From NCBI RefSeq assembly GCF_016907875.1, contig NZ_JAFBCU010000001.1, positions 434,001-498,000 on the forward strand: a DNA stretch of 64,000 nt. The letters run 5' to 3'. Below, one piece after another: positions 16,674-43,768 of the stretch. The notes under the pieces are model-generated. The model did not search any database. It worked only from the letters and a program-made list of their open reading frames with translations, and was not told where the DNA came from. A program made the position numbers and the translations under genes. Source of the stretch: Arthrobacter roseus. GTDB lineage: Bacteria > Actinomycetota > Actinomycetes > Actinomycetales > Micrococcaceae. Numbering within the stretch: position 1 is the first letter of the stretch; every line of letters starts with the position of its first letter.

Positions 16674-16740
16674 CGAAGTCACCCCTTGCCATCAAAATTG
16701 CCCCTGTGCGGGGTGATCTCGCGGGTAGGGGGTGACTTCG
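16674..16740 (+). repeat. Dispersed palindromic element, copy 1
   Basis: The outer arms CGAAGTCACCCC (16674-16685) and GGGGTGACTTCG (16729-16740) match perfectly over 12 bp. The right inner part (TGCGGGGTGATCTCGCGGGTAG, positions 16707-16728) is shared with copy 4, while the left inner arm is eroded, leaving only CCCC/GGGG around TGTGC. The right edge is 3 nt from the ATG of the next gene. Confidence 0.85.
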
Positions 16741-16743
16741 GCC

Positions 16744-18111
16744 ATGGAGAAATCTCAAAATTTGATAAGGGCGGGGAACGTGCACCAGTCGGAAGCAGCT
16801 GAGCAGGACCAGCGAGAGAGCAAGCTGAAAAAAGCGATCAGCGGGAAATTACTCTTCCTCTTCATCCTCGGTGACGTCCTTGGTGCCGGAATCTATGCGC
16901 TTGTGGGCGTGATAGCCGGGGAAGTGGGCGGCGCCATCTGGGTCCCCATGCTTATCGCATTGCTGTTAGCTCTGCTGACCGCTTCATCCTACGCGGAACT
17001 GGTCACCAAATACCCACGCGCAGGTGGAGCCGCGGTCTTCGCCGAACGCGCGTACCGGAAACCGATGATCTCCTTCCTGGTGGGCTACGCCATGCTCGCC
17101 GCCGGCGTCACCAGCGCAGCCGGACTGTCCATTGCTTTCGCAGGCTATTTCACGTCGTTCCTTCCCGGCTCACAACTCTTGATCACCACCGTCTTTCTGA
17201 TCGTCGTCGCCTTCCTGAATGCCCGCGGTATCAAGGAGTCGGTGCGGAGCAACGTGGTCATGACCGTCATCGAGGTATCCGGACTAATCCTTGTCATAGT
17301 CCTGGTAGCCCTCATGCTTGGTGCGGGCGACGGCGACATCAGCCGGGTCAATGATTTTCGCCAGGGCGTTAGTGCTCCCGTTGCCATCCTGGGAGCAGCG
17401 CTCATCGCGTACTACTCGTTTGTTGGCTTTGAAGTCTCGGCGAACGTTGCGGAAGAAGTCCGAAATGTCCGCAAGGTGTATCCCAGAGCGCTCTTCGGCG
17501 CTCTGCTCACTGCTGGCGTTGTCTACGTACTCATTGGGCTGGCCTCGAGTATCACCTTGTCACCAGAAGCGCTTCAGTCCTCTGATGGTCCGCTACTGGC
17601 TGTTGTCAAGGAAACGGGATTCGGAATTCCCCCGTGGCTCTTCGGAATTATTGCACTTATAGCCGTCGCGAACGGTGCACTCCTGACTATGATCATGGCC
17701 AGCCGCCTGGCTTATGGGATGGCAGAAGAGGGTCTGCTGCCGTCTGTGTTCGGTCGTGTCCTGCCGAACCGGCGCACCCCATGGGTGGCCATCGCGGTGA
17801 CAACCGCCGTCGCCATTGCCTTGACGTTCACGGGCGGGCTGGCAGCACTCGCTGAAACTGTGGTGCTGCTACTCCTCTTCGTCTTTGTCAGCACCAATGT
17901 TGCCGTCCTGGTGCTCCGCAAGGATCGCATCGAGGAGAAGCACTTCAAAGCTCCCACGATTGTCCCGGTACTGGCAATCATTTCCTGTCTGGTGCTGCTG
18001 ACACAGCAGGACGGTGCCGTCTGGCTGCGGGCAGGGATCCTCATGGCAGTGGGCGTGGGACTCTATTTCCTCACGAGAATTAGGGGTGGCGCAGCGCGTC
18101 AGCGCTCTTGA
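16744..18111 (+). CDS. APC-family amino acid permease
   Basis: 455 residues from the ATG at 16744, with about 12 membrane helices. TM1 is GKLLFLFILGDVLGAGIYAL, the YfnA/cationic-amino-acid-transporter style APC motif; TM6 contains YYSFVGFEVSANVAEEVRN. Substrate is not predictable. The start is ambiguous: the ATG at 16744 directly abuts a palindromic element whose GGGGGTGA is the only purine run upstream, while an in-frame GTG at 16780 follows TAAGGGCGGGG and would give VHQSEAAEQ as N-terminus. The 3' end overlaps the convergent RelA/SpoT-domain gene by 32 nt. Confidence 0.88.
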   Translation: MEKSQNLIRAGNVHQSEAAEQDQRESKLKKAISGKLLFLFILGDVLGAGIYALVGVIAGEVGGAIWVPMLIALLLALLTASSYAELVTKYPRAGGAAVFAERAYRKPMISFLVGYAMLAAGVTSAAGLSIAFAGYFTSFLPGSQLLITTVFLIVVAFLNARGIKESVRSNVVMTVIEVSGLILVIVLVALMLGAGDGDISRVNDFRQGVSAPVAILGAALIAYYSFVGFEVSANVAEEVRNVRKVYPRALFGALLTAGVVYVLIGLASSITLSPEALQSSDGPLLAVVKETGFGIPPWLFGIIALIAVANGALLTMIMASRLAYGMAEEGLLPSVFGRVLPNRRTPWVAIAVTTAVAIALTFTGGLAALAETVVLLLLFVFVSTNVAVLVLRKDRIEEKHFKAPTIVPVLAIISCLVLLTQQDGAVWLRAGILMAVGVGLYFLTRIRGGAARQRS

Positions 18112-19198
18112 ACGCCTTGATCTGACGGTGCCTGCGCAAAAGGCTGTCCCTGCGAGGGTGAACCTCCGACGACGTCGACTCGGCGGTCAGCTCAATGTGG
18201 TCTTTACCAAATCGCCACAGCAACACATCATCCAAGAGCCGGTCCGGTCCGGGGGAGTAACGGTGTTCCAGGGCCCTCCGGACTTTGGTAATGGTCTCGG
18301 CCTGCAGCAGGTCTGCCAACTGAATCGTGGTTTTCAGTCCATGGGCTGCGAGGAGTTCTGCGGCCCAACCCCAGTCGTCGTCTGACTTTCGGTCCACGTG
18401 CGGAAGCAGCGTCTCCCAGATATGCCGGATCCGGTTTGGGGTAAGAGGTTCCACTCCCTCGCCGTCCTCGTCCCAGAAACCCGTCACTGTCTCGTACCGG
18501 TCATACAGCTCCGCGAACGCCGACTCCACTGTCTCCAGCATGGCCGCCGTTGCCGTGAACTGCCGGTCAAAATACGGACTCCAGGCACGGGGGTCGGATG
18601 CCTTGAAGCGGATGTCGTGTTCAATCTCGCTCCACGCGTGGGCGAGGATGGTGCGGATCTGGACCTCGAACATGTAGCTTCCCGAGGCGTTCCCGTCCGG
18701 CTCGATGGTTTGCTGGAACCGCTTGACGACGTCGTTCTTGATGGTACGGAGAATCAGGTGGCGGCTGGAGTATCCGTAGGTTCCGGACTCGATGGAACCG
18801 ATGTCCTTCTCGCGGTCCCCGCGGCAATCGAAGTCGGAGCGATGACGTTTGATGAGGTTCGCAGCAAGGGCCACCTCGTGGGGAAGCGCCGTGATGACAC
18901 GTACCCCCACCACATCCGTCAGATTTCGTAGCGGATCCGGGAAGACCAAGGATGGCGGATCCTCCTCCGAAACAGGCTCCAACATGCGGGACGCCTTTTC
19001 ACGAAATGAATCCAGAGATTTGGTGCGGGCAGTAACGAATAGTGGATGGACCGCGGAGTCGGCAAATATATCCTGAATCTCCGCACGGACTTCCTGCGTC
19101 ACGAACTCCATGCTGCTGCGAATGCGCTCGAACTCGTCAACACTCGCCTGAACCAGAGGCCGCAGACTCTTATCCAGCTGTTCCCAGTTACTGCTCAT
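18080..19198 (-). CDS. RelA/SpoT-domain protein (single-domain alarmone synthetase-like) with C-terminal helical extension
   Basis: 372 residues from the ATG at 19198, 5 nt after AAAGGGAG (an in-frame GTG lies 6 nt earlier). Residues of about 60-230 form the nucleotidyltransferase domain that transfers pyrophosphate from ATP to GDP/GTP. Visible landmarks are LTDVVGVRVITAL, YGYSSRHLIL and the guanine-site motif EVQIRTILAHAWSEIEHDI. No HD hydrolase, TGS or ACT domain is present, so this is not the bifunctional Rel. About 140 residues after the synthetase domain (including DDDWGWAAELLAAHGL and DDVLLWRFGKDHIELT) look helical and match nothing I can name. It may make (p)ppGpp or pApp-like products or be a regulated toxin; activity is inferred. 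Confidence 0.85.
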   Translation of the reverse strand: MSSNWEQLDKSLRPLVQASVDEFERIRSSMEFVTQEVRAEIQDIFADSAVHPLFVTARTKSLDSFREKASRMLEPVSEEDPPSLVFPDPLRNLTDVVGVRVITALPHEVALAANLIKRHRSDFDCRGDREKDIGSIESGTYGYSSRHLILRTIKNDVVKRFQQTIEPDGNASGSYMFEVQIRTILAHAWSEIEHDIRFKASDPRAWSPYFDRQFTATAAMLETVESAFAELYDRYETVTGFWDEDGEGVEPLTPNRIRHIWETLLPHVDRKSDDDWGWAAELLAAHGLKTTIQLADLLQAETITKVRRALEHRYSPGPDRLLDDVLLWRFGKDHIELTAESTSSEVHPRRDSLLRRHRQIKAFKSADALRHP

Positions 19199-19309
19199 AT
19201 CCACTCCCTTTCCTGACCATCGCCAGCCTACCCGTCAGCACCGACAATGGGCAGGTAAGCTCGGTCCGGCACCGATACGAGTACCGAACACAGCAGCGAA
19301 GGGACAGCC

Positions 19310-20038
19310 GTGGAGCTCATCAATCAGTGGTGGCAGCAACTCCTCGCCGGCTTCGCACGAGCCCAGGTGCCAGAGGTTACGGCCATTGAACTTCTCATCA
19401 TCGCGCTCGCGGCGGCGGCGCTGTCCATTCCCGCCACGACCTGGCGATACTTTGGGCTGTTCACGACCGTGGTGCACGAGCTTGGCCACGCATTCACTGC
19501 CCTCATGACCGGGCGCCTCCTTACCGGAATCACGCTCAACCGTGACCATTCGGGCATGACCACCTCCTACGGCCGCGGCGGGTGGCGGACCGTGTGGTCG
19601 GGATTCTGGGGGTATCCGGTTCCTGCTGTCGTTGGAGCTGTCCTGGTGTGGGCGGGGCTTTCCGGCTGGGGTCCGGCGGCGACTTCGGTGGGCGCGCTGG
19701 TGTTATTGGCTACCATTTTGTTCATCCGTAACTGGATGGGACTGCTCATCATGATGGGAGCCGTCGTCGTCTCGGCCGTCCTGATTCTGGCAGTGCCTGC
19801 CTCGTTCACTGGGCACGTTGTTATCGGGCTCGGATTGGCGCTGCTGGTTGGCTCAGTCCGCGACCTGATCAACGTCATCACCGTGCACACCTCACGTCGA
19901 CGCAGCGTTGACCAGTCCGACGCCTACCTCCTTTACCGCCAGACTCATATCCCGTCAGTGGTCTGGCTGCTGTTGTTCACCGTCGTCGTCGGGCTGTCGT
20001 GGACTTTCGCCGGATACGTCATCAACAGCAGAATCTAG
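19310..20038 (+). CDS. M50-family-like membrane metallopeptidase
   Basis: 242 residues from a GTG with GAAGGGA upstream. His56-Glu57-xx-His60 (VVHELGHAF) is a zinc-protease motif at a membrane helix edge, as in site-2-type M50 peptidases. About six hydrophobic stretches follow. A second motif (LLVGSVRDLINV, with Asp) could give the third zinc ligand. No PDZ domain is present. Related actinobacterial proteins are annotated as M50 family peptidases, but no substrate is known. It is divergent from the RelA/SpoT-domain gene and 18 nt upstream of the hydrolase gene, with which it probably forms an operon. Confidence 0.8.
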   Translation: MELINQWWQQLLAGFARAQVPEVTAIELLIIALAAAALSIPATTWRYFGLFTTVVHELGHAFTALMTGRLLTGITLNRDHSGMTTSYGRGGWRTVWSGFWGYPVPAVVGAVLVWAGLSGWGPAATSVGALVLLATILFIRNWMGLLIMMGAVVVSAVLILAVPASFTGHVVIGLGLALLVGSVRDLINVITVHTSRRRSVDQSDAYLLYRQTHIPSVVWLLLFTVVVGLSWTFAGYVINSRI

Positions 20039-20056
20039 CCAACCGAAAGGAACGCC

Positions 20057-20869
20057 ATGCCGCAGCGCTACTCCTACGGGGATGATCCAAGCCAGTACGC
20101 TGACCTGTTCCTGCCCGCCGAACAGCGTCACCGTGCCGTCGTTGTCATCATCCATGGCGGTTACTGGCGTTCACAGTACGACGCCGGACTCGGCGTTCCC
20201 CTGGCCGAGGACCTTTCCGCGCGCGGCTATGCCTGCTGGAATCTGGAGTACCGCAGAGCTGGCAACGGTGGAGGGTGGCCGGAAACGTTCGACGACGTCG
20301 GCTCCGGCATCGATGCGCTGGTCCGCGCCGCTGTTGAGCATGAATTGGAGCTGGAGAACGTCATTGCCCTGGGCCATTCGGCGGGCGGACACCTGGCCGT
20401 GTGGGCAGCCGGGCGGGACACCATGCCGGACGGCGGCCGCAATGGCCCCAGTGACCCTACCGGCTCTGAATCAGATGGTTCCCGCGTGAAGCTGACCGGA
20501 GTCGTGAGTCAGTCTGGACTGCTCAATCTGCATATGGCGCACTCACTCGGGCTCAGTGGGGGTGCAGCAGAAAACCTCATGGGCGCGGCACCAGAGACAG
20601 ACCCGGAGCGGTGGAGGCTCGCGGATCCCATGAGCGCCATCCCGTTAAACGTTCCGGTCTTTGCCCTGCACGGGGAGGACGACGTCACAGTCCCGTTGAG
20701 TGAATCAACCAGCTACGTGGACGCGGCAGTTGCCGCCGGGGCCGACGTCGAACTCCGAATGATCCCGGGAGACCATTTCGGCATGATCACTGCGGATACC
20801 GCGGCTTGGGAGCAGGTGGTGACGGCGGTCGCGGACCTGGCGCAGGAGACGGACCCGGCGCCAGGTTAA
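20057..20869 (+). CDS. Alpha/beta hydrolase (esterase/kynurenine-formamidase-like)
   Basis: 270 residues. The oxyanion motif HGGYW is at residues 33-37, as in kynurenine formamidase and BD-FAE-like hydrolases, and the nucleophile elbow GHSAGG has Ser108. The acid is probably the second Asp in HGEDDVTVP and the base His in GDHFGMI. AAAGGA precedes the ATG. No signal peptide is present. A formamidase role would need tryptophan-catabolic neighbours, which are absent, so only 'esterase/amidase-type hydrolase' is supported. Confidence 0.88.
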   Translation: MPQRYSYGDDPSQYADLFLPAEQRHRAVVVIIHGGYWRSQYDAGLGVPLAEDLSARGYACWNLEYRRAGNGGGWPETFDDVGSGIDALVRAAVEHELELENVIALGHSAGGHLAVWAAGRDTMPDGGRNGPSDPTGSESDGSRVKLTGVVSQSGLLNLHMAHSLGLSGGAAENLMGAAPETDPERWRLADPMSAIPLNVPVFALHGEDDVTVPLSESTSYVDAAVAAGADVELRMIPGDHFGMITADTAAWEQVVTAVADLAQETDPAPG

Positions 20870-20878
20870 AAGAGGGAA

Positions 20879-20907
20879 CGGCCGGTCCCCCCCAACAGGA
20901 CCGGCCG
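20879..20907. terminator. GC-rich hairpin between convergent genes
   Basis: Arms CGGCCGGTCC (20879-20888) and GGACCGGCCG (20898-20907) pair perfectly over 10 bp with a 9-nt loop. It lies 9 nt after the hydrolase stop and ahead of the stop of a small minus-strand ORF, so it could act in both directions. No T-run follows on the + strand. Confidence 0.6.
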
Positions 20908-20933
20908 CTCCAGCTTCTCGTGGATCGAAGTGG

Positions 20934-21140
20934 TTACTTCATCCAGCCGATATTCGTCGTTGTCTTCGCATGTGGGCATCCACGGGTACAGAACTTCGGA
21001 GCCGGCAGCGGCTCTTCCCAATCCATGCCATCGAGCTGGATGTCCTGCAGCTGCTTCCGGTCCGTCGCCAGAGCGACGCTAGTGGCAATGTAAAGCATCA
21101 GCGTGTAAGAGATGCATCGTCGGACCATAAATTTCAGCAA
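20934..21140 (-). CDS. Small hypothetical protein (doubtful)
   Basis: 68 residues from a TTG at 21140 with AGAGG 9 nt upstream (an ATG gives 64). The first 26 residues (MLKFMVRRCISYTLMLYIAT) look like one membrane helix after a basic start. They resemble the N-terminus of DppB-type ABC permeases, so this may be a permease remnant. The rest contains EEPLPAPKFCTRGCPHAK with a CxxxC. The shared terminator-like hairpin at its 3' end argues for a transcribed unit. I do not recognise the whole protein. Confidence 0.35.
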   Translation of the reverse strand: MLKFMVRRCISYTLMLYIATSVALATDRKQLQDIQLDGMDWEEPLPAPKFCTRGCPHAKTTTNIGWMK

Positions 21141-21249
21141 GTCGTAGTACCTCTGGGCTTCTGCCGGGAGCTTCCGCGACCACTCTGACGCTGAAAGTAA
21201 CCCTCGATATCAACTCACGTCACTTTGCCAAGACTAAGTGACCGCTGTC

Positions 21250-21278
21250 ACGTTGCTAAGGCAACGATTTAGCAACGT
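21250..21278. repeat. Inverted repeat with internal third half-site
   Basis: ACGTTGCTAA (21250-21259) and TTAGCAACGT (21269-21278) are perfect 10-bp arms around a 9-nt centre that itself contains GCAACG, so GTTGC/GCAAC occurs three times. This is the look of an operator with an extra half-site. Confidence 0.6.
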
Positions 21279-21339
21279 CGCTTTCTAACTGCCGAATTCT
21301 CGGTGTTTATGGCCCAAAAAAGTTGAGGGACGCAGACGA

Positions 21340-21360
21340 AGTGTCCACGATGTGGACACT
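21340..21360. repeat. 21-bp inverted repeat
   Basis: AGTGTCCAC (21340-21348), GAT, GTGGACACT (21352-21360): perfect 9-bp arms around 3 nt. It stands 140 bp before the small membrane protein gene at 21500. It could be an operator or the remnant of a site-specific recombination or transposon end; no partner copy is seen in the window. Confidence 0.6.
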
Positions 21361-21499
21361 AGCTATCATGTCCGGTCTGTCAATTCGCAACTCAACTGAG
21401 GTCTCCAGCCTGTCGTGCAGGTCGCGGGGTATGCCAGAAGCACAGGCCCCGCGATCTGCCCTCCCTAGTGGCGTTCTGCTCGCGTGACAGAACTCGAAA

Positions 21500-21865
21500 A
21501 TGAACTTCATTGAGATCTTGGTCGTGCTGATAAGTGGTGGCGCTGTGGGCGCTCTTGGCACATGGGCGACAGCCACCCGTGACCTCGCGCTTCGTCGTCG
21601 AATGGAAACCACAGATGTATTCATGCGAGTTTCGGCACGGGCTCATGGCTACCGGGAGAATCACACTTCCAGCACAGTCGGAACGGGTGAACAAATGGCG
21701 GCTATGTTCTTGGTGGCTGATTTGGCCAACCGCGATAAATGGCTGAGGAAGGCCGCAGTCCAACTACTAGATGAGGAGTGTTACTGGTTAGAAGCTGGAT
21801 TTCCTGACCAGACGTGCGGTCGCTTATTAGTTGCGGCTAAGGAGGCACGAAGTCTCATCAAATAG
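21500..21865 (+). CDS. Small membrane-anchored protein, function unknown
   Basis: 121 residues. The first about 20 (MNFIEILVVLISGGAVGALG) form one membrane helix, followed by a basic stretch (DLALRRRMET) that would stay in the cytoplasm. The soluble part contains GTGEQMAAMFLVADLANRDKWLRKAA, likely helical. The ribosome site is weak. Codon choice is less GC-biased than in neighbours. The pattern of one anchor, a short basic linker and a helical region looks real, but no named family is recognised. Confidence 0.55.
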   Translation: MNFIEILVVLISGGAVGALGTWATATRDLALRRRMETTDVFMRVSARAHGYRENHTSSTVGTGEQMAAMFLVADLANRDKWLRKAAVQLLDEECYWLEAGFPDQTCGRLLVAAKEARSLIK

Positions 21866-22320
21866 AACAGTGCCGTTCGCGCCTATTCTCGAACGTCACG
21901 TTGACGCAGAGCGGCTAGGGCCACGCGGTGTCGGCGTCGGAAGGCAAGCGTGAACGGCTGGCCGTTTCGCGGTTTACGCGCGCAACGTGCGTCGTGTTTT
22001 CGTTCTCCTCCACAGCGATAACGTTATGACCTACGATGACGCCGACCGCTCCTGAGCTTCGGGCTCCGTTGGTGTCCAAAAGGGCTTAGAGAATCTGGAG
22101 AAACTGGTTATCCCCGTCGCCGCGGCTACGAAAGCGCGCTCACCTGCGCTGACGAATCGGGCTCGGATGGCCAGCGCAGAGCGCACCTCGGCCGGAGAGC
22201 AGGGAAAACTGCTCGACGTCAAACACGCCGCGATAGCCGCAGTGAGAACTCCACCCTGCTAAATGTCGGTTACAACGAATACGCTGAAGCAAAGGTCAGC
22301 AACCAGAGAGAAGGACCACC
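21866..22320. other. Gene-free stretch of 455 bp
   Basis: No ORF with family features on either strand. A 63-codon minus frame (22031-22222) and the reverse + frame lack start signals and resemble nothing I know. The last 30 nt contain the ribosome site (GAGAGAAGGACCACC) of the next gene. It could be degraded coding sequence. Confidence 0.5.
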
Positions 22321-22791
22321 ATGGGAATGATTCGCGGATTCATGAATGGCGCTTTAGCAGGGGCTGCCGGCACGACAGCTCTGAACGCCGTCACCTATCT
22401 GGACATGGTGATGCGTGCCCGCCCGGCCAGCAGCACCCCTGAGACGACCGTTAAAAAGCTGAGCGAGAGAGCCGATGTCCCGATTCCGGGGTCGGGCGAA
22501 GAACGACAGAACCGTATTTCAGGCCTGGGTCCGCTGTTTGGAATCGCCACGGGCATGGGCGTCGGCGCTATCCTTGGTGCAATCCAGGGGGCAGGGGCCA
22601 GGCCTCCCGCAGCCGTGACCATTCTCCTTGCAAGCGCTGGGGCCATGGCCGTGTCCATTCTCCCGATGACGCAGCTTGGGGTGACGGATCCGCGAAAGTG
22701 GCAGACCCAGGACTGGATCAGCGACGTCGTGCCTCATGTTGCATACGGCGCTGTCACAGCCCATGTGCTGGAGAATATGCGGGAACACTGA
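22321..22791 (+). CDS. Conserved-looking membrane protein, function unknown
   Basis: 156 residues, AGAAGGA upstream of the ATG. Helix 1 is about residues 5-30 (GFMNGALAGAAGTTALNAVTYL), a soluble loop carries KKLSERADVPIPGSGEERQNR, and two glycine-rich helices follow (IATGMGVGAILGAIQGAGA; VTILLASAGAMAVSILPM). It ends WQTQDWISDVVPHVAYGAVTAHVLENM. The Gly/Ala-rich helices and invariant-looking RISGLGPLFGIATG suggest an actinobacterial family of unknown role. It is 14 nt upstream of the PfkB kinase gene. Confidence 0.7.
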   Translation: MGMIRGFMNGALAGAAGTTALNAVTYLDMVMRARPASSTPETTVKKLSERADVPIPGSGEERQNRISGLGPLFGIATGMGVGAILGAIQGAGARPPAAVTILLASAGAMAVSILPMTQLGVTDPRKWQTQDWISDVVPHVAYGAVTAHVLENMREH

Positions 22792-22805
22792 AGTACGCTG
22801 GAGCT

Positions 22806-23741: not shown

Positions 23742-24271
23742 GTTCACGCGATCCGTACGCGGATCTTCCTCAGATTCCTGATTTCAGGGTGACCAGTGAT
23801 GACGTCCAGGATGGGGCGCCCCTCGATGCCGCTCAGGCGTCCGGCGTTATGGGTTCTGGCGGCCAGGACCGTTCTCCGCAACTGTCCTGGAGCGGGTTCC
23901 CTGAGGGCACTAAAAGTTTTGCGGTCACCGTCTATGACCCGGACGCGCCCACTGCCAGCGGTTTCTGGCACTGGGCAGTTGCAAACATCCCGGTTGGTAC
24001 CACGGAACTACCTGCAGGAGCTGGGTCTGAAGGCAGCTCAGCCTTGCCCAAGGGCGCCGTCGAGCTCAGGAACGACGCTGGATTCCAGGGATTCGTCGGT
24101 GCGGCGCCGCCTCCCGGTCACGGTCCGCACCGCTACTTCGTGGTGGTTCATGCCGTCGACGTCGAACAGCTCGATGTGGATGCGGACACCCCGTGCGCAA
24201 AGTTGGGTTTTAACCTGTTTAGCCATACTTTGGGCCGCGCACAGGTCATCGGTACTTACGAGCTGGGGTAG
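23738..24271 (+). CDS. YbhB/YbcL family (phosphatidylethanolamine-binding-like) protein
   Basis: 177 residues from the ATG at 23738, which overlaps the kinase stop; TTAGGAG stands 8 nt upstream. The PEBP fold is supported by [40 protein letters not shown] (the DPDxP and GxxHW motifs lining the anion pocket) and [16 protein letters not shown]. Bacterial members are soluble and bind small anions; physiological roles are unknown. Confidence 0.92.
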
Positions 24272-24313
24272 CCTGTCCAGCAAATGTCAAGGTTCAACCC
24301 CGTGGGACCGCAG

Positions 24314-33095: not shown

Positions 33096-33108
33096 CCCTC
33101 CCCTCCAG

Positions 33109-33177
33109 CCGAAGTCACCCTTTGTCGACGAGGTCACCCCGGCGCGGGGTGTCCTCGCGGCTCAGGGGTGACCTCGG
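33109..33177 (+). repeat. Dispersed palindromic element, copy 2 (best preserved)
   Basis: The outer arms CCGAAGTCACCC (33109-33120) and GGGTGACCTCGG (33166-33177) pair with one mismatch. Inside, CGAGGTCACCCCG (33129-33141) and CGGGGTGTCCTCG (33145-33157) pair with one T-T mismatch around a 3-nt loop. The result is a hairpin nested within a longer hairpin. It lies between the stops of two convergent genes. Confidence 0.9.
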
Positions 33178-33192
33178 CCGGGGCGGACAGAG

Positions 33193-34786: not shown

Positions 34787-34826
34787 CTCTGAGGTCACCC
34801 CTCAACAATAGGGGGTGACCTCAGAG
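34787..34826 (-). repeat. Dispersed palindromic element, copy 3 (single hairpin)
   Basis: CTCTGAGGTCACCCC (34787-34801) and GGGGTGACCTCAGAG (34812-34826) pair perfectly over 15 bp with a 10-nt loop. It has the same GAGGTCACCCC core as the other copies but lacks the inner part. It lies between the stop of the POT gene and the start of the acyl-CoA ligase gene on the same strand, and could act as a terminator or attenuator. Confidence 0.85.
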
Positions 34827-34869
34827 AAAGACCCTGACTTCAAGAACCGAAAAGCACCAGCAGGAGCGT

Positions 34870-36339
<1,470 letters not shown>

Positions 36340-36405
36340 TTCTACTATGTTGCCACTCACCTTGTGGACTGTCATATCCCTTTTCATGAGGAGGCATTAT
36401 GCTGG

Positions 36406-37836
36406 CTAGTTCTGTACGGTCGTTATTCCTTCGGTGAAGTGACGCTCAAGCCGCGCCGAAACGCTCAGCAGGGTAGCTTCGGAGCTCGGCCGCCCTATGA
36501 GTTGAATCCCCATGGAAAGCCCCTTCGGTGTTGTGTGGGTAGGGATGGTCAACGCTGGCAGGCCGCACACGTTGACCATGGATGTGTAGGGCGTGTATTG
36601 GCATTGCCGCACGTAGTCCGTGTCGCCGTCGTCGGTTGTGTACCAACCAATAGGCCGCGGGGTCATGGCCATCGCTGGGGTGAGGATCAGATCACATTGG
36701 GCGTACTGGGCAATAGTGTCCTCCTCGAATGTGCGCAGGATTCCGATGGCCTCGGCAAGGTCCGCGGCGCTCCTTGTGAGCGCCCGACGCCGGAGGGTTC
36801 GCGTGATCGGAGTGAGCGCGGCTTCCCGGTCAGATGCGATTGGTGCCTGGCTGAGTCCTGCAGTCCATACGGTCTGAAAGGCGTGGTGGTATCGGTTGTC
36901 GTAGCGGAGTTCCGCTTCAACAACGTCGTGCCCGATGGCGGTAAGCGCCTTCTCACCGCTGTCCAGTGCAGTCCTGGCGGCTTCTTCGAGCGTGATGTCC
37001 ATGGTGCTGTCGAAGGGGGATGCGGTACTGAGGCCTATGCGTAGCTTTGTTCTGCCCGCGTTCCTGGATTCAAGGAGAGCGCCGAGGAAGGTGCCGTGCC
37101 CTTCGCGCGCGGCGCTGGTGGCATGGAAATTCGGTGCGTCCACCATGGCGTCCAGCAGAAGTGCTGCGTCTGTGGTTGTTCTGGCGAGTGGTCCGGCAAC
37201 GACGAACTGGCCAAGATCGGATTGCCCGGAGCCGCCCGGGACCCGGCCGCGATTGGGTTTGAGACCGATCAGACCGGTGGCCGACGCTGGAATGCGCACA
37301 GATCCACCGCCATCGGTTCCGGGTGCGAAGGGGAGCATTCCAGCAGTCACTGCAGCGGCGCTCCCGCCCGAGGAACCACCGGGGCTCAAAGCGGGGTCCA
37401 GCGGATTGCGCGCTGGAGCGGCAATGAGATTTTCGCTATAGCAGCTGAGCCCGAACTCGGGAACCTGAGTTTTGCCGAGGCTGATGGCTCCGGCCTGTCG
37501 CAGGAGGGCGACCAGCGGCGAATCGGCGTCCGCAAGGGGATGGTCGACGGCGGCGGAACCGTACGTGGTCCTTACACCGGCGACGTCGGTGAGGTCCTTG
37601 TGCGCGAGCGGCAGCCCGTGGAGAAGGGTCAGTGGTTCTCCGGCGGCCTGCCGTTCATCAGCTGCGGCAGCTTCGACCATCGCGGACTCGGCGGTGACCG
37701 TGATGAAGGACCCCAAGTCAGGGTTGAGTTCCTCGATCCGGCGCAGATAGTGCTCGGTGAGTTCGCGAGCGCTGAGTTCACCGGCAGCTACAGCGTCCCG
37801 TTGCTGGAGGGCGGTGAGCTCGTGGATCTCACTCAT
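36406..37836 (-). CDS. Amidase (amidase-signature family)
   Basis: 476 residues. The Ser-cisSer-Lys triad can be placed: Lys80 in LAHKD, cis-Ser at 155/156 in PGGSSGGSAAA, and nucleophile Ser179 in GTDGGGSVRIPAS. The start follows GGGGGAGC by 7 nt and overlaps the stop of the upstream peptidase gene (ATGA), so translation is coupled. It hydrolyses a C-N amide; it is not GatA because no gatC/gatB are adjacent and the length and context differ. Substrate unknown. Confidence 0.92.
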   Translation of the reverse strand: MSEIHELTALQQRDAVAAGELSARELTEHYLRRIEELNPDLGSFITVTAESAMVEAAAADERQAAGEPLTLLHGLPLAHKDLTDVAGVRTTYGSAAVDHPLADADSPLVALLRQAGAISLGKTQVPEFGLSCYSENLIAAPARNPLDPALSPGGSSGGSAAAVTAGMLPFAPGTDGGGSVRIPASATGLIGLKPNRGRVPGGSGQSDLGQFVVAGPLARTTTDAALLLDAMVDAPNFHATSAAREGHGTFLGALLESRNAGRTKLRIGLSTASPFDSTMDITLEEAARTALDSGEKALTAIGHDVVEAELRYDNRYHHAFQTVWTAGLSQAPIASDREAALTPITRTLRRRALTRSAADLAEAIGILRTFEEDTIAQYAQCDLILTPAMAMTPRPIGWYTTDDGDTDYVRQCQYTPYTSMVNVCGLPALTIPTHTTPKGLSMGIQLIGRPSSEATLLSVSARLERHFTEGITTVQN

Positions 37837-38573
37837 GCAGGTGCTCCCCCGAGGAATCGTGGTTCGAGTCGTTCTTCTGTGACAGAGCCGTCATCGGACC
37901 TGCGCACAATATAGGCGCCCTTGCCGCGAATCTCACTTACGGCCTCGCTCAGGTGGGTCCGGCGATAAACAAGGCCAACGCCGTCGTCCGTGCAGTGCGT
38001 TTCACCGAGCACGCCGTCGGCCACCAACCGGTGAATCAAGGGGCGTCTGCCCGGCTCGCTGTCGTAGTGGACACCGTTGTCATAGGGGAGCAAGGCTAGT
38101 CCGTTGGTGAGCGGTCGCAGCTCCGGCCCAAATGAATCCGTGGCCCCGCCGCGGAACCAGCAGATGGATCCTGCCGAGATTCCAGCGAGCACCACGCCCG
38201 CTTCCCACACTCGGCGAAGCATGGAATCGAGACCGTGTACCCGCCAGACGGCCAGCAAATTCGCCACCGAACCGCCATTGACCCAGACCACATCCTGTTC
38301 AAGCAGGTGTCCTTCCATGTCCTCGAGGTTAGGCATGGGGAAAAGGCTGAGGTGCGTCATCCCGAAACCGGCGATGCGCGCGGCCTCATCCATGTCGCGC
38401 TGAAAGGACGGCAGATCGCCGGTGGCGGTCCCCACGTTCGTGATGCGCGGAGCGCCGCCCACCCCGGAAAGTTCGACGGCGTGGCGAACCAGGTGGTCCA
38501 ATTCGAACCTGACTCTCCTGCTTGGCTTGTATCCGCCGGAGGTGGCGAGGATGGTCGGCTCTCTGGTTGGCAT
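37833..38573 (-). CDS. Peptidase E-like protein (S51 family)
   Basis: 246 residues from the ATG at 38573. The nucleophile Ser133 is in LAGISAGSICW, the S51/class-I-glutaminase-like elbow, and VWVNGGSVANLLA matches the conserved GG(S/T)xNLL segment. In the family, peptidase E cleaves Asp-X dipeptides, and relatives act as cyanophycinase. It is the first gene of a pair with the amidase; the POT transporter is next on the same strand, suggesting a peptide scavenging set. Confidence 0.88.
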   Translation of the reverse strand: MPTREPTILATSGGYKPSRRVRFELDHLVRHAVELSGVGGAPRITNVGTATGDLPSFQRDMDEAARIAGFGMTHLSLFPMPNLEDMEGHLLEQDVVWVNGGSVANLLAVWRVHGLDSMLRRVWEAGVVLAGISAGSICWFRGGATDSFGPELRPLTNGLALLPYDNGVHYDSEPGRRPLIHRLVADGVLGETHCTDDGVGLVYRRTHLSEAVSEIRGKGAYIVRRSDDGSVTEERLEPRFLGGAPA

Positions 38574-38642
38574 GGGTCCACTATAGGCTTGGAGCACCTT
38601 TCCAACGACGGCAGAATACAGGCGAGACCAAGGGAGAGCAGC

Positions 38643-38969
38643 ATGAGCGACGTAGAGAACGTATCAGTAGGTACCATCGGCGAGGACGCGAAAATCCTTG
38701 ATGTGCGCGAGGACTATGAGTGGGAAGCTGGCCATGCCACGGGGGCAGTCCACATTCCCATGGATCAGATTCCCCAACGGCTGGATGAACTGGACCCGGA
38801 CGAGGACCTGCACGTGGTGTGCCGAAGCGGCGGACGCTCTGCGCAGGTCACCCAGTGGCTGAGTTCCAACGGTTACTCCGCGGTCAACGTCGAGGGCGGT
38901 ATGGGTGCTTGGCTGGAGGCTGGAAAGCCCATGGAGTCCGAAAACAGTCAGGACCCGACCGTCCGATGA
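38643..38969 (+). CDS. Single-domain rhodanese-like sulfurtransferase
   Basis: 108 residues; AAGGGAGA stands before the ATG. ILDVREDYEWEAGHATGAVHIPM is the rhodanese CH2A motif, and the active-site loop CRSGGRS has Cys60. It carries persulfide sulfur. A TATAGGCT sequence at about 38582-38589 could be the -10 element. Its stop overlaps the pheA start (ATGA). Confidence 0.92.
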   Translation: MSDVENVSVGTIGEDAKILDVREDYEWEAGHATGAVHIPMDQIPQRLDELDPDEDLHVVCRSGGRSAQVTQWLSSNGYSAVNVEGGMGAWLEAGKPMESENSQDPTVR

Positions 38970-39892
38970 CGCCCCGGTACGCGTTCCTGGGCCCAGAAGG
39001 AACTTTCACGGAAGCCGCACTCCTGCAGATCCCTGGTGCAGATGCGGCGACGAGAATCCCGGCGTCAAACGTCAACGCTGCGCTGTACCTGGTCCGCTCC
39101 GGCGAGGCCGACGCCGCGATGGTACCGGTTGAGAATTCCGTGGAGGGTGGCGTAACGGCTACCCTCGATGCCATCGCCACGGGCCAAGAGTTGCGCATTA
39201 CCCGCGAGGTACTGGTTCCGATCAGCTTTGTACTGGTTGCTGCCCGCGACATGTCACTAACCGACGTGCGGTCTGTTTCGACTCACGGCCATGCCTGGGC
39301 ACAGTGTCGGCGATGGGCCCATTCTAATATTCCGACAGCGGAATACGTGCCGGGGACCTCCACGGCGGCAGCCGCCGTCGGGCTCCTGGAGAGTGGTGCG
39401 GAATATGATGCAGCCATTTGCTCCCCACTGGTGGCCCGCGCTCGCGGACTCACGGTCCTGGCGGACAATATCGCTGACGTGCCGGACGCCGTGACACGCT
39501 TCATCCTGCTCGAGCGGCCAGGCCAACTGCCTGCACCGACGGGCACGGACAAAACCACCCTCGTCATCCCCCTGCCGGAGGACCGGCCGGGTGCTCTGAT
39601 GGACATTCTGGACCAGTTCGGCACGCGCGGTGTGAACTTGAGCCGGATCGAGTCGCGTCCAACGGGGTCGTTCCTCGGAGACTATTTCTTCAGCATCGAC
39701 GCCGAAGGGCACGTTGCTGACGCGCGCGTCGCAGACGCGCTGCGTGGACTTCACCGTCTCAGCCCTGGGCTGCGGTTCCTGGGGTCCTATGCGCGGGCGG
39801 ACCGTTCGGAGTATGCGGTGGCGGGCCATACGGCAGATGATGCTTTCCAGGCCGCGGATCACTGGGTGAATCAAATTATCGGCAAGCAGTAG
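38966..39892 (+). CDS. pheA: Prephenate dehydratase
   Basis: 308 residues starting within the rhodanese stop (ATGA). It converts prephenate to phenylpyruvate in phenylalanine synthesis. The catalytic domain shows YAFLGPEGTFTEAAL, VPVENSVEGGV and the TRF motif (DAVTRFILL). The ACT domain from about residue 205 has PGALMDILDQFGTRGVNLSRI and the phenylalanine-binding ESRP motif, so feedback inhibition by Phe is expected. No chorismate mutase domain is fused, the usual actinobacterial form. Confidence 0.96.
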   Translation: MTPRYAFLGPEGTFTEAALLQIPGADAATRIPASNVNAALYLVRSGEADAAMVPVENSVEGGVTATLDAIATGQELRITREVLVPISFVLVAARDMSLTDVRSVSTHGHAWAQCRRWAHSNIPTAEYVPGTSTAAAAVGLLESGAEYDAAICSPLVARARGLTVLADNIADVPDAVTRFILLERPGQLPAPTGTDKTTLVIPLPEDRPGALMDILDQFGTRGVNLSRIESRPTGSFLGDYFFSIDAEGHVADARVADALRGLHRLSPGLRFLGSYARADRSEYAVAGHTADDAFQAADHWVNQIIGKQ

Positions 39893-39958
39893 TTCAAGCC
39901 TCTTCTGATCAGTAGGCTTAGCAGTCAGATTGTGCTCTGCTGATGAAACGAGGTGGCC

Positions 39959-40933
39959 ATGCCGAGACTGCGTCGCAGTGCCGTGGATAAGCCAGGCATC
40001 AGGCGACGTCGTAGAGGTAAGGGTTTCAGCTACACCGACGAGAACGGCAACACCGTCCGGGATCCCGAAACGCTGCAACGGCTCAGGGATCTCGTGGTCC
40101 CGCCAGCTTGGACAGACGTCTGGTTAGCAACCCACGCCAACGACCACATTCAGGCTCTGGGGACGGACGCAGCTGGCCGACGCCAGTACATGTATCACCA
40201 AAAGTGGCGGGAGACCAAGGACCGCGAAAAGTTTGACAGGGCCCTCGAATTCGCAAGTACGTTGCCGTCCGCCCGTCGGACGATCACCCGGCACCTACGT
40301 GCTGACGAAATTACCCGGGAACGCGCATTTGCTGCCGCCCTACGCATTGTCGACTCGGGAGCGCTAAGGGTCGGCTCCGCCCAATACGCACAAGCCAATG
40401 GCTCGTTTGGCGTGACCACGCTCCTTGGCAAACACGTCAAGCTCCGCGGCAACAGCATCGGGTTCGACTTCCCCGGCAAAAGCGGTCAACGGTGGCACAT
40501 CACCCTGGAGGATGAAGACCTTGCCCGGGCGCTTAAACCGATGCTCCGCCGCAACGCCGAAGAGCGGGTTCTGTCCTACAAAGACGACGACGGCGCCTGG
40601 CACAGCGTGGACGGCAACCAACTCAATGAATTCCTGAGGCAAGTCACCGGCGGGGACTTCACGGCCAAAGACTTCCGGACCTGGCAGGCAACCGTGTCCG
40701 CTGCCATGGAACTCGCCCGTGCAGACGCTGGCGCTTCCAGTGACACGGCCCGGCGCAAAGCCGTCACCGACATGATGAAAACCGTGGCTGAACACCTAGG
40801 AAACACACCCGCCGTCGTCCGTAGTTCCTACGTTGACCCGCGGCTTGTCGAGATGTTCATGAGAGGTGAGGCGATCCAGACCTGTGGAATCTCGACCTCC
40901 GAACGGGCTGTTCAGGATCTTCTCAACGGTTAA
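39959..40933 (+). CDS. DNA topoisomerase IB (poxvirus-like bacterial type)
   Basis: 324 residues from the ATG at 39959, 5 nt after GAGG (an in-frame GTG 6 nt earlier is too close). It relaxes supercoils through a 3'-phosphotyrosine. The N-terminal domain has GKGFSYTDENGNTVRD and LVVPPAWTDVWL; the catalytic domain has FDFPGKSGQ (Lys), KDFRTWQATV (Arg), and Tyr291 in VRSSYVDPRL. All are standard for bacterial TopIB. A TAGGCT hexamer at 39913-39918 may be its -10 element. Confidence 0.95.
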   Translation: MPRLRRSAVDKPGIRRRRRGKGFSYTDENGNTVRDPETLQRLRDLVVPPAWTDVWLATHANDHIQALGTDAAGRRQYMYHQKWRETKDREKFDRALEFASTLPSARRTITRHLRADEITRERAFAAALRIVDSGALRVGSAQYAQANGSFGVTTLLGKHVKLRGNSIGFDFPGKSGQRWHITLEDEDLARALKPMLRRNAEERVLSYKDDDGAWHSVDGNQLNEFLRQVTGGDFTAKDFRTWQATVSAAMELARADAGASSDTARRKAVTDMMKTVAEHLGNTPAVVRSSYVDPRLVEMFMRGEAIQTCGISTSERAVQDLLNG

Positions 40934-40971
40934 GGCTTTCCATCAACCCTATTCATCATTAGGCTTTCCAT
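40933..40971 (+). repeat. Direct repeat of 11 bp
   Basis: AGGCTTTCCAT occurs at 40933-40943 and again at 40961-40971, 28 bp apart, between topoisomerase IB and the acidic protein gene. The second copy is preceded by T, giving TAGGCT, which resembles the -10 hexamers before other genes here. Confidence 0.7.
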
Positions 40972-41012
40972 AACGCGGTCTAACGCGCATCCCATCTCGA
41001 GGAGGCAGCATC

Positions 41013-41279
41013 ATGACGGAACAGGACAACACGGATCCCCGCAAGCCAGGCGAAGGAGCCACCGCTGATTCAGAATGGCGTGGCGACGCAGGCGATCAGG
41101 GAAATGACCTGCGCTTCGGCGAAGAGCAGCAACTGATTGAGGAGCAGTCCAAGGCGAACGCGCCCGAGGGCGAGCAGGATCAGGCTGACAGCTCCCAGGG
41201 CTACACAAGCCACCAGGACCGGCATCATCCCGGCGGGTACACGGACCGCGACGAGGAAAGCTCGGACGACGGGAAGTAA
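41013..41279 (+). CDS. Small acidic, probably disordered protein
   Basis: 88 residues with a strong GAGGAGG before the ATG. Composition is dominated by Asp, Glu, Gln, Gly and Ser with no hydrophobic core (for example GEEQQLIEEQSKANAPEGEQ). No family recognised. The good ribosome site and the position 79 nt after topoisomerase IB make translation likely. Its stop is 2 nt from the stop of the convergent lipid kinase gene. Confidence 0.65.
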   Translation: MTEQDNTDPRKPGEGATADSEWRGDAGDQGNDLRFGEEQQLIEEQSKANAPEGEQDQADSSQGYTSHQDRHHPGGYTDRDEESSDDGK

Positions 41280-41281
41280 AG

Positions 41282-42334
41282 CTAGCTGGCCCCGCGGACC
41301 AGTAGCGCACCGGCTTCAACCTCTACACTGAGCGACGTCACGGCCCCCATGGGGTCGCCGTCGAGCTGTGTCTCCAGGGGTTCAGGAACGGAAATTTGGA
41401 CCTTACGCGCCACATGTAGCTCCATGACAGGTATAGGTCGTGGGTGGCGGAAAACAACTTTTCCGGCCATCCACGCCCAGCCGAGTGCCGTCCTGGGGCT
41501 GATGATCACAATATCGAGCGTGCCATCATCGAGCACGGCATTCGGGATGAAATCCACTCCACCAGGCAGTTTGCCGCAGTTGACGAAGAGAACACTTCGC
41601 ACTTTTCGAACCTGCTCCGGGCCGTCGTCAATGCTGATGGACACGCGTTTGCGGCGGCCGGGAAGGTTGCGCAGACCCGACTCGCTGTAGGCGAGCCACC
41701 CAACGCTGCGCTTGAGTTCGTCTCGTGTATCCGACACCATTTTCGCGTCCAGCCCGATCCCGCCGATCACCAAGAACCCATGCGTTGAGTGGGCTCCTGT
41801 TTCCCTGTTCACCAGTTGGATTCGGGCCATGTCGATATAGCGTTGCGCGCCGTGGAGAGCCATTCGGATGTTGTGCTGCAGTTCCGTCACGTTCAAGTCC
41901 AGGTTTCTGGCCAGCAGATTGCCTGTGCCCAGCGGGACCACACCCATTGGCGTACCCGAGTGTGCCAGTTCCTGGCCAACAACCCGCACGGTGCCATCGC
42001 CGCCCCCCACCAATACGACGTCGCACCGGAGCTCCATTGCCCGCCGGGCCTGCGAGTAGCCCGGATCTACGACGGTAGTTTCAAGGATTACGGGCGGGTC
42101 CCAGCCTGCTGCCCGGCATTCCTCCGCCACGATAGTGCGAGCCTTTTCCGCATTGAATTTGATGGGGTTGACAACAAAGGCAACCCGTTGATGGCCGCGA
42201 CTGGACGTCACTGGGATTGCAGCAAGTGTCAGCCGGGTGCGGCGCCGTCGGATCAGTACGACGGCGACCACGACCATGGCGAGCAGCAGTAGCACTGTGG
42301 CTATCGCTGGCACAAGCACAGATACGGAGGTCAT
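41282..42334 (-). CDS. YegS/DAGK-like lipid kinase with N-terminal membrane anchor
   Basis: 350 residues. An N-terminal helix (residues about 8-28) is followed by RRRR, so the catalytic part is cytoplasmic. The diacylglycerol-kinase catalytic domain starts near residue 50; GGGDGTV (110-116) is the nucleotide loop and VPLGTGNLLARNL the second conserved motif. VEVEAGALLVRG ends the C-terminal beta-sandwich. It phosphorylates a lipid or sphingosine-like alcohol; the true substrate is unknown. Confidence 0.9.
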   Translation of the reverse strand: MTSVSVLVPAIATVLLLLAMVVVAVVLIRRRRTRLTLAAIPVTSSRGHQRVAFVVNPIKFNAEKARTIVAEECRAAGWDPPVILETTVVDPGYSQARRAMELRCDVVLVGGGDGTVRVVGQELAHSGTPMGVVPLGTGNLLARNLDLNVTELQHNIRMALHGAQRYIDMARIQLVNRETGAHSTHGFLVIGGIGLDAKMVSDTRDELKRSVGWLAYSESGLRNLPGRRKRVSISIDDGPEQVRKVRSVLFVNCGKLPGGVDFIPNAVLDDGTLDIVIISPRTALGWAWMAGKVVFRHPRPIPVMELHVARKVQISVPEPLETQLDGDPMGAVTSLSVEVEAGALLVRGAS

Positions 42335-42399
42335 TGTGCTTCCCAGCCTACAGTTCAGAAGGCACGTGATCCGCCGTCGTTCTTCTGTAGTCTTGGAGG

Positions 42400-43686
42400 G
42401 TGATCGACATCAATGACCTCCGCGACAGCCCGGAAAAGTACCGCCAGTCCCAGCGCGCACGCCGTGCCGATGAGTCGTTGGTGGAGCAGATCATCTCGGC
42501 TGACATGCTTCGCCGTGAAGCGATCAATCGGCATGAATCTCTGCGGGCTGAACAGAACGCGTTTGGCAAGAAAGTCGCTGCGGCCAATGGTGATGAAAAG
42601 CAGGAACTGCTGGCATCGGTGAAAGAACTTGCTGCTTCGGTGAAAGTTGAGGGTGCGCGGGCGGAGTCGATGAAGGCTGAGCAGGAGGCGCTCGTGCGGA
42701 GCCTGCCCAACCTCATTGAGGAAGGGGTGCCGTCCGGCGGTGAGGATGATTTCGACGTCGTCAAGACCGTGGGAACGCCCCGGGACTTCTCGGCGGAGGG
42801 ATTCGAACCGCGTGATCACCTGGAGATCGGCGAACTGCTGGGCGCGATTGATATGGAGCGTGGCGCCAAGGTTTCCGGGTCGCGTTTTTATTTTTTGAAA
42901 GGCGTCGGAGCCCGGCTGGAACTGGCCCTGCTGAACATGGCCATGGAGCAGGCCATCGCCGCGGGCTTCACCCCGATGATCACCCCAACCCTGGTTCGTC
43001 CCGAAACGATGCAGGGCACCGGGTTTGACGTGGCACACGACGCCGAGATCTACCGTCTCGCCGAGGACGACCTCTATCTTGTGGGTACTTCAGAAGTGCC
43101 ACTGGCGGGGTATCACTCGGACGAGATCATTGACCTGTCCGCAGGACCCACACGCTACGCGGGCTGGTCATCCTGCTATCGTCGCGAGGCTGGATCTCAT
43201 GGCAAGGACACTCGCGGCATCATCCGCGTGCATCAGTTCAACAAAGTGGAGATGTTCTCCTATATCTCACCAGAGGACTCCGGCGCGGAGCACCTGCGCA
43301 TGCTCGCATGGGAGGAGGAGATGCTGGCCAAGGTGGAATTACCGTATCGGGTCATCCACACCGCTGCCGGGGATCTGGGTATGTCCGCTGCCCGAAAGTA
43401 CGACTGCGAGGCATGGGTCCCCACCCAGAACGCGTTCCGCGAACTGACGTCCACCTCCAGCTGCACCACTTTCCAGGCACGCCGTCTGAACATCCGCGAA
43501 CGGGTTATGAAGGACGACGGCAGCAAGGGCGGGACCCGCGCCGTCGCTACGCTCAACGGAACGTTGGCCACCACCCGCTGGATAGTCGCGATCCTCGAGC
43601 ACCACCAGAACGCGGACGGCTCCGTCAACGTGCCCGTTGCACTGCGTCCGTATCTCGGCGGTCTGGAAGTCCTGCCCGTCCTCTAG
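42400..43686 (+). CDS. serS: Seryl-tRNA synthetase
   Basis: 428 residues, GTG start giving the family N-terminus [18 protein letters not shown]. The N-terminal coiled-coil arm spans about residues 30-105. Class II motif 2 is [20 protein letters not shown], followed by FNKVEMF, and motif 3 is [24 protein letters not shown] touches the GTG directly, which is too close to act as a ribosome site, while TAGTCT (42388-42393) lies 6 nt upstream, so a leaderless message is plausible. Confidence 0.97.
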
Positions 43687-43699
43687 CGAAACCTTCCCG

Positions 43700-43768
43700 C
43701 CGAGATCACCCCCTACCCGCCAAATCAACCGTGTGCGGGGTGATCTCGCAGGCAGAGGGTGACGTCGG
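43700..43768 (+). repeat. Dispersed palindromic element, copy 4
   Basis: It begins CCGAGATCACCC (43700-43711) and ends GGGTGACGTCGG (43757-43768). The left arm GAGATCACCCC also pairs perfectly with the inner GGGGTGATCTC, so two alternative folds exist. The inner right part TGCGGGGTGATCTCGC is shared with copy 1. It starts 14 nt after the serS stop. Confidence 0.85.

What the first reader, a model, noticed from the sequence alone, without database searches (positions are those of the whole stretch)
16674..43768. Family of four dispersed intergenic palindromic elements with a nested-hairpin design
Seen in sequence: 16674-16740, 33109-33177, 34787-34826 and 43700-43768 share a GAGGTCACCC / GGGTGACCTC core and are 67-69 bp long, except the 40-bp third copy. 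The best copy (33109) has outer arms of 12 bp enclosing an inner 13-bp hairpin, each with one mismatch. The inner right part TGCGGGGTGATCTCGC is shared by copies 1 and 4. All lie between genes, in three different contexts: between convergent stops, between co-directional genes, and against a start codon. This resembles REP/BIME or MITE-like repeats. No encoded transposase is present here, so mobilisation in trans would be needed.
Basis: partly seen in the sequence, partly recalled or inferred. Interest (0 to 1): 0.7.

Follow-up and report, generated by a model that had tools for sequence, protein, structure and literature searches.

The report
Fixed-geometry palindromic elements at gene ends
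Short palindromic DNA elements of constant size, built from four evenly spaced short boxes, lie scattered mostly behind genes in this bacterium and in some of its close and distant relatives, each species with its own version of the sequence, which points to an unidentified DNA-binding protein that reads them.

Summary
In detail: the four palindromes are real and belong to a dispersed family (34 places found in this 3.08-Mb genome, 35 fetched in its sister species). The element is stricter than described: about 72 bp, four 11-bp boxes (two direct, two inverted), neighbours about 8 bp apart (19-bp pitch). A pattern fixing only four CGAR tetramers at that spacing matches 63 of 396 genomes of the order (438 matches; reversed control 6). 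Stem sequence differs between genomes and subfamilies, yet the two arms of a copy match far better than shuffled arms. G-U and A-C mismatches are equally common in the sense strand, so the symmetry is not kept by RNA pairing rules. Elements favour convergent gaps, avoid divergent ones, and are present or absent at orthologous gaps; a few positions are shared across genera. REP/RAYT and classical MITE readings fail defining tests: no Y1 transposase over cut-off in 8 genomes, no target duplication, no separated ends in this genome. Best reading: an order-wide REP-like family of DNA recognition sites for an unidentified protein, amplified per lineage and often retained behind genes. The protein and its effect are inferred, not shown.

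The parts
16672..16742 (+). Copy 1 (71 bp). Boxes 16674-16684, 16693-16703 (degenerate), 16711-16721, 16730-16740
   Evidence: Model hit 76.4 bits, genome 450672-450742; boxes
33108..33178 (+). Copy 2 (71 bp), between convergent stops. Boxes 33110-33120, 33129-33139, 33147-33157, 33166-33176; spacers 8, 7, 8
   Evidence: Model hit 76.1 bits, genome 467108-467178; boxes
34788..34842 (+). Copy 3, atypical: inner pair of boxes 34790-34800 and 34813-34823 plus a degenerate right outer box 34832-34842; left outer box not recognisable
   Evidence: Model hit 25.7 bits on 34788-34825; extension; sequence
43699..43769 (+). Copy 4 (71 bp) between a seryl-tRNA synthetase and a HAD-family hydrolase. Boxes 43701-43711, 43720-43730 (degenerate), 43738-43748, 43757-43767
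   Evidence: Model hit 72 bits, genome 477699-477769; neighbours by Pfam
42400..43686 (+). Upstream neighbour of copy 4: seryl-tRNA synthetase
   Evidence: PF00587, PF02403
43829..44716 (+). Downstream neighbour of copy 4: HAD-type hydrolase
   Evidence: PF08282
33193..34716 (-). Gene between copies 2 and 3: AMP-binding (acyl-CoA ligase type) enzyme
   Evidence: PF00501, PF13193
32814..33095 (+). Left convergent neighbour of copy 2: DUF4190 protein
   Evidence: PF13828
34870..36273 (-). Right neighbour of copy 3: POT-family transporter
   Evidence: PF00854
16780..18111 (+). Downstream neighbour of copy 1: amino-acid permease
   Evidence: PF13520

Best explanation
The elements are chromosomal DNA recognition sites of fixed geometry. 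Shown: about 68-72 bp, four boxes beginning CGAR at a 19-bp pitch (two direct, then two inverted), arms that stay complementary within a copy although the sequence changes between genomes, bias to convergent and away from divergent gaps, presence/absence at orthologous gaps, and no RNA-strand bias of mismatches. Inferred: an unidentified sequence- and geometry-specific protein binds the four boxes as duplex or as extruded hairpin; its specificity drifts per lineage and the copies follow. The family was amplified by copying in separate lineages, and copies that lie behind genes are tolerated or kept, probably because the bound protein or the hairpin limits transcription running from one gene into the next. 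The amplifying enzyme and the effect on transcription are not shown.
For: 34 places in this genome and 35 fetched places in the sister species; 32 of 34 and 34 of 35 are 71-73 bp (lengths). Pattern fixing only four CGAR/YTCG at fixed spacing: 63 of 396 order genomes, 438 matches by my tally, against 6 genomes with one control match each. At pairs the pattern did not fix, the 91 plus-strand matches printed pair at 0.82/0.72/0.70 (rest of first box/spacer/rest of second box); in genomes with three or more printed copies 0.84/0.74/0.73 against 0.63/0.59/0.60 when right halves are swapped within a genome, and 0.33/0.42/0.33 when swapped between genomes. Sense-strand mismatches in co-directional contexts: GU 72, AC 69 (from, counts of the two orientations combined) and GU 35, AC 38. 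In 15 orthologous copies boxes are 85% identical, spacers and loops 67%; non-orthologous copies 78%, 55% and 52%. Gene context: 30 of 67 convergent and 3 of 67 divergent, against 78 and 108 of 536 element-free gaps (Fisher P 4e-8 and 7e-4). The gap downstream of scpB is occupied in 4 of 27 genomes of one genus with three different box types. Sinomonas has the same box in nested inverted arrays; all printed two-box matches there have a 21-bp pitch.
Against: No binding protein was identified. In this genus the stem is imperfect: the outer CCC/GGG triplets of the two arms vary independently and the first ten-copy alignment showed no covariation excess. Agreement between arms could come from template-switch correction of palindromes rather than selection. 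The family is patchy (model R1: 18 of 395 family genomes; 31 of 39 relatives had no match), so it is dispensable. In a smaller set of 40 order-wide elements the context (14 convergent, 19 co-directional, 4 divergent, 2 inside genes, 1 unclear) hardly differs from all gaps of the same loci (29, 45, 17, element gaps included). No expression or binding data exist here.
Confidence: 0.5

Rival explanations
1. Bidirectional transcription terminators or mRNA 3'-end hairpins acting as RNA (U-less or Rho-assisted), repeated because they spread.
For: Tight packing between convergent stops; C-rich, G-poor DNA before the element on both strands (C 0.46, G 0.21 in 43 flanks of convergent copies, against 0.33 and 0.29 in 33 control convergent gaps); three other genera have terminator-like hairpins of other sequence in the same trkA/proC gap (L267, L270, L272).
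Against: No excess of G-U over A-C mismatches in the sense strand; fixed total length and fixed CGAR boxes are not needed by a terminator; T-rich sequence just after the hairpin on 7 of 230 sides, A-rich by the same rule on 13; no Rfam match at gathering score in the window.
Confidence: 0.17
2. REP/REPIN-type elements moved by a RAYT (Y1 tyrosine transposase).
For: Dispersed intergenic palindromes, tens of copies, per-genome sequence families, rarely between divergent genes.
Against: No PF01797 match over cut-off in 8 genomes, six of them carriers (one sub-threshold partial match in G008); no constant unpaired tetranucleotide foot; length about twice that given for REPs in PMC3733652 (20-40 bp, abstract seen).
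Confidence: 0.06
3. MITEs: two transposon ends joined, moved in trans by a DDE-type transposase binding repeated end sites.
For: Inverted arms carrying repeated sites; empty sites in the sister species; an in-frame copy inside menD of G361.
Against: No target duplication: over 111 copies, k=4-9 and six offsets gave a single match; the box-pair pattern finds no separated ends in this genome (44 of 47 hits lie in known copies); one element used as blastn query had no match in plasmids or phages, and viral contigs showed no excess.
Confidence: 0.1
4. Chromosome-organising sites (like the sites of nucleoid-occlusion or macrodomain proteins), spread over the chromosome and sparse near the terminus.
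For: One 0.70-Mb stretch (1.42-2.12 Mb) of this genome has no copy; P=0.027 by random placement with clusters counted once; sampled GC skew is mixed before it and mostly negative after it.
Against: Weak, chosen after seeing the data; the origin was not located; by coordinate offset the sister species has two copies in the matching part of one contig; patchy among species.
Confidence: 0.1
5. Hairpin sites for a tyrosine-type recombinase, as integron attC sites are (recalled): structure conserved, sequence free, two boxes per arm about 8 bp apart.
For: Box-8-box geometry and within-copy arm covariation.
Against: Copies are solitary and dispersed in G000; boxes are direct, not inverted, along a folded arm; the attC end sequence as recalled is absent; no recombinase was searched for.
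Confidence: 0.05

Closest known systems
REP / BIME / REPIN elements (GTAG- and CGTC-tagged families)
   Same: Dispersed, intergenic, palindromic, families differ between species; CGTC families also lack a dedicated transposase (PMC3733652, passages seen)
   Different: Fixed 68-72 bp with four boxes at a 19-bp pitch; only CGAR is constant and it is paired; no Y1 transposase over cut-off in 8 genomes; 'Actinobacteria' has 0 occurrences in that paper
MITEs (features recalled)
   Same: Short, non-coding, inverted arms, presence/absence between species
   Different: No target duplication; no transposon with the same ends found in this genome
Integron attC sites (features recalled)
   Same: Structure kept while sequence is free; two boxes per arm
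   Different: Other box sequence, solitary and dispersed
Intrinsic or Rho-dependent bidirectional terminators (features recalled)
   Same: Hairpin between convergent genes with C-rich flanks
   Different: Repeated sequence family with fixed geometry; symmetry not biased to RNA pairing rules; no T tract as a rule
Rickettsia palindromic elements (mentioned in passages of PMC3733652, otherwise recalled)
   Same: A palindromic repeat can lie inside a gene (menD of G361)
   Different: Here mainly intergenic; sequences were not compared

Membership tests
REP/RAYT | Many dispersed intergenic palindromic copies in one genome | tested here: met
   34 places in G000, 35 fetched in G001
REP/RAYT | 20-40 bp hairpin with an unpaired GTAG/GGAG or CGTC foot | tested here: not met
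   68-72 bp; the constant tetramer is CGAR, inside the paired region
REP/RAYT | Y1 transposase (RAYT) in the genome | tested here: not met
   0 of 8 genomes over the PF01797 cut-off (six carriers, two without model hits); the control rang in 6 of 14 named genomes
MITE | Terminal inverted repeats | tested here: met
   Arms of about 30 nt, imperfect in this genus
MITE | Target-site duplication | tested here: not met
   111 copies, k=2-9, offsets 0-5: no excess at k>=4 (one match, at k=5); k=3 offset 2 gave 5 against 0.9 expected, one of 48 combinations
MITE | Resident transposon with the same ends | tested here: not met
   Box-pair pattern with 2 mismatches: 47 hits, 44 in known copies, 3 isolated two-mismatch hits, control 2; own genome only
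Intrinsic terminator | Hairpin followed by a U tract | tested here: not met
   7 of 230 downstream sides T-rich, 13 A-rich by the same rule, in 115 copies
Intrinsic terminator | Symmetry maintained by RNA pairing rules (G-U tolerated more than A-C) | tested here: not met
   GU 72 vs AC 69; GU 35 vs AC 38 in 26 elements
Integron attC | Integrase and cassette array | not tested
   No integrase search was run
DNA-binding-protein site | A protein that binds it | not testable with these tools
   Needs pull-down or ChIP

The most novel reading that the evidence does not exclude
An order-wide class of sites whose geometry is fixed (four CGAR boxes at a 19-bp pitch, two direct and two inverted) while the rest of the stem is free and differs per subfamily: a structure-read DNA element with its own unknown recognition and copying machinery in Actinobacteria, used by the host behind genes, and not a REP, MITE, attC site or terminator.
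Probability: 0.3. Interest if true: 0.82.

Novelty: new variant of a known kind. Interest (0 to 1): 0.6.

Why it matters
Ten full-text searches of the open library listed no description of such a palindrome family in Actinobacteria of this order. An element with fixed geometry but free stem sequence in 63 of 396 sampled genomes suggests one conserved machine that reads it. That makes the machine findable, by co-occurrence across genomes or by pull-down, and asks what it does behind genes.

Tried and rejected
Rfam gathering searches of the window and of four loci gave nothing. A plasmid search with a 1.9-kb window stretch gave only two Streptomyces gene matches; one element as query gave no match in plasmids or phages. 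In viral contigs the architecture pattern (with CGAG/CTCG) gave 8 stretches against 9 for the control; only L413 pairs well, 0.73. The first half-site pattern was mis-spaced by one base; its 5 hits are in effect a chance level, and one search is the corrected search. RNA hairpins were tested twice and dropped as the main reading. Covariation: none in the first 10 copies or at the CCC/GGG positions, weak in G000 (86 of 1000 shuffles reach it), more in G001, G256 and G308 (4 to 9 of 1000), clear order-wide. Terminus depletion is reported but weak. ARAGORN was run on six loci. Papers: search listings only; passages of PMC3733652; subscription journals are not in that library.

Rows dropped: the TSD test used 111 copies and left out copies under 70 bp, the G148/G134 arrays and the second copy of L111; one search used 15 of the 16 orthologous pairs (L043/L062 left out as short); one search used all 91 plus-strand matches that one search printed, whose list is cut, chance-like ones (such as G657, G453, G593, G531) included; one search counted 40 of 53 loci (9 of low pairing and 4 without the pattern dropped, among them real variants such as L350 and L351); one search counted 72 of 82 loci (pairing under 0.6 dropped).
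Full report
WHAT IS THERE. The window lies at 434001-498000 of a one-contig genome of 3,076,990 bases (G000). An alignment of ten copies gave a covariance model R1 that finds 34 distinct places in this genome (a lower bound, since 150 of 3005 candidates were scored). In the only other genome of the genus returned, G001 (an uncultured Micrococcaceae isolate, by contig-length match), 35 places were fetched and confirmed. 32 of 34 and 34 of 35 are 71-73 bp (lengths).

ANATOMY. Each typical copy has four 11-bp boxes, consensus CGARRTCACCC in this genus: two direct boxes on the left, two inverted boxes on the right. About 8 bp lie between neighbouring boxes, so the pitch is 19 bp. Single boxes are often degenerate, as in window copies 1 and 4. 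The triplet after CGARRTCA can be CCC or GGG, and the states of the two outer boxes vary independently, so a perfect stem is not required here. The outer state is mostly, not always, the same in orthologous copies (L035/L070 differ).

HOW WIDE. R1 matched 8 of 39 relatives at E<=0.001, 18 of 395 genomes of the family at E<=1e-5 and 15 of 396 of the order at E<=1e-6, this genome included. The hits keep the length but have other boxes, for example CGAGGTAGCCC, CGAGTTCGCACC, CGAGGTCGTCAC. A pattern that fixes only CGAR-15-CGAR-22-YTCG-15-YTCG matched 63 of 396 genomes: 438 matches by my tally, 33 genomes with three or more, 19 with one. The reversed control matched 6 genomes once each, so some of the single matches are chance. 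On the 91 plus-strand matches printed, positions left free by the pattern pair at 0.75 overall and 78 of 91 reach 60%. In genomes with three or more printed copies the three regions pair at 0.84, 0.74 and 0.73, against 0.63, 0.59 and 0.60 after swapping right arms within a genome; over all 91 they pair at 0.82, 0.72 and 0.70, against 0.33, 0.42 and 0.33 after swapping between genomes. Geometry and symmetry are kept while sequence is not.

DNA OR RNA. In co-directional gaps of the first-round genomes (G000, G001 and others) the sense strand has 72 G-U and 69 A-C mismatches (48+24 and 54+15, the second term being the copies whose model orientation opposes transcription). In 26 further elements it has 35 and 38. 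An RNA hairpin under selection should favour G-U. It does not, so the constraint acts on DNA or arises when the DNA is copied.

WHERE. In G000 and G001 together 30 of 67 classified copies lie between convergent genes, 34 between co-directional and 3 between divergent genes (simple gene caller). In 536 element-free gaps of at least 1 base in the fetched stretches the numbers are 78, 350 and 108; Fisher P is 4e-8 for convergent and 7e-4 for divergent, and similar against gaps of at least 75 bases. Other genomes give 31 convergent, 26 co-directional, 5 divergent and 10 other. A subset of 40 order-wide elements gave 14, 19 and 4, 2 inside genes, 1 unclear, close to the 29, 45 and 17 of all gaps in the same loci, element gaps included, so outside this genus the bias is not established. 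The last 30 bases before an element in convergent gaps are C 0.46 and G 0.21, against C 0.33 and G 0.29 in the first 30 after the stop in 33 control gaps; order-wide 0.41 and 0.32. This fits C-rich Rho-loading RNA on both strands or a target preference. T-rich sequence directly after the hairpin is rare (7 of 230 sides).

HISTORY. At least 16 of the 34 G000 sites have a copy at the orthologous place in G001. In 15 of these pairs boxes are 85% identical, spacers and loops 67%; random non-orthologous pairs give 78%, 55% and 52%. At 8 of 8 examined G000-only sites G001 shows no recognisable element; of 4 examined G001-only sites, G000 has none at 3 and a decayed remnant at 1 (alignments judged by eye). 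In several the missing stretch is longer than the element, so clean insertion junctions were not seen. The other ten G000 sites were not resolved. Across genera: of 30 loci fetched for the trkA/proC gap, 18 have the two genes next to each other. The element is in G000 and G001, a 61-65 bp palindrome with similar ends in two genomes of genus g20, and nothing similar in the other 14, three of which have terminator-like hairpins. A site with both flanks matching is shared by G000, G001 and Sinomonas (L043, L062, L091). Downstream of scpB an element sits in 4 of 27 genomes of genus g6, with box types GTGAGATCACC (two genomes), GAGACCACACC and GCGACCACACC; none was seen in the 200 bases downstream in the other 23 (one locus is cut short). 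In G361 a copy is translated in frame in a variable linker of menD. So the family has gained or lost sites and also kept some sites over long times with its sequence replaced.

WHAT IT IS NOT. No PF01797 match over cut-off in 8 genomes. No target duplication in 111 copies. No separated ends in this genome. No match of one element in plasmids or phages and no excess in viral contigs. No Rfam family at gathering score in the window or four loci.

MECHANISM. Best-supported: a protein reads the four boxes on DNA. Shown are geometry, symmetry, lack of RNA-strand bias and location; the protein, its oligomeric form, the way the element is copied and an effect on transcription behind genes are inference. 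A purely selfish, REP-like life with an unknown enzyme is the closest alternative and is compatible with most of the data; the retention of geometry at conserved positions is what tips the balance. The 0.70-Mb element-free stretch is a weak hint of a chromosome-scale role (P=0.027, post hoc).

NOVELTY. Ten full-text searches listed no description of such elements; the nearest paper is PMC3733652, of which I saw passages. I call it a new variant of dispersed palindromic repeats, with a fair chance that it is a class of its own.

Noticed in passing
   Followed up: partly
G000 genome 1.42-2.12 Mb: The longest stretch without any copy found, near where sampled GC skew turns mostly negative.
   Followed up: partly
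L099 1001-1072 (G361): A copy lies in frame inside menD, in a linker that is variable between genera.
   Followed up: yes
L111 and L113, positions 1003-1005 (G256): The element's CGTGA start supplies the stop codon of the upstream reading frame.
   Followed up: no
L325, downstream of scpB (G050): A long, very C-rich and G-poor stretch precedes the element, like a Rho loading site.
   Followed up: partly
L274, L275 (genus g20), trkA/proC gap: A 61-65 bp near-perfect palindrome whose loop is inverted between the two species, as if the element had flipped.
   Followed up: no
L019, L028, L032 (G000): Three copies lie within about 75 bp of tRNA genes (Ala, Tyr, Leu).
   Followed up: no
G500, G601, G417, G680: Single genomes carry several subfamilies with different stems but the same geometry.
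   Followed up: partly
L183 (Saccharophagus sp. K07): Two two-box matches 42 bp apart in a gammaproteobacterium; may be an unrelated tandem array.
   Followed up: no
L369 (G681): The flanks of one copy are themselves long inverted repeats of each other, as if a larger palindrome enclosed the element.
   Followed up: no
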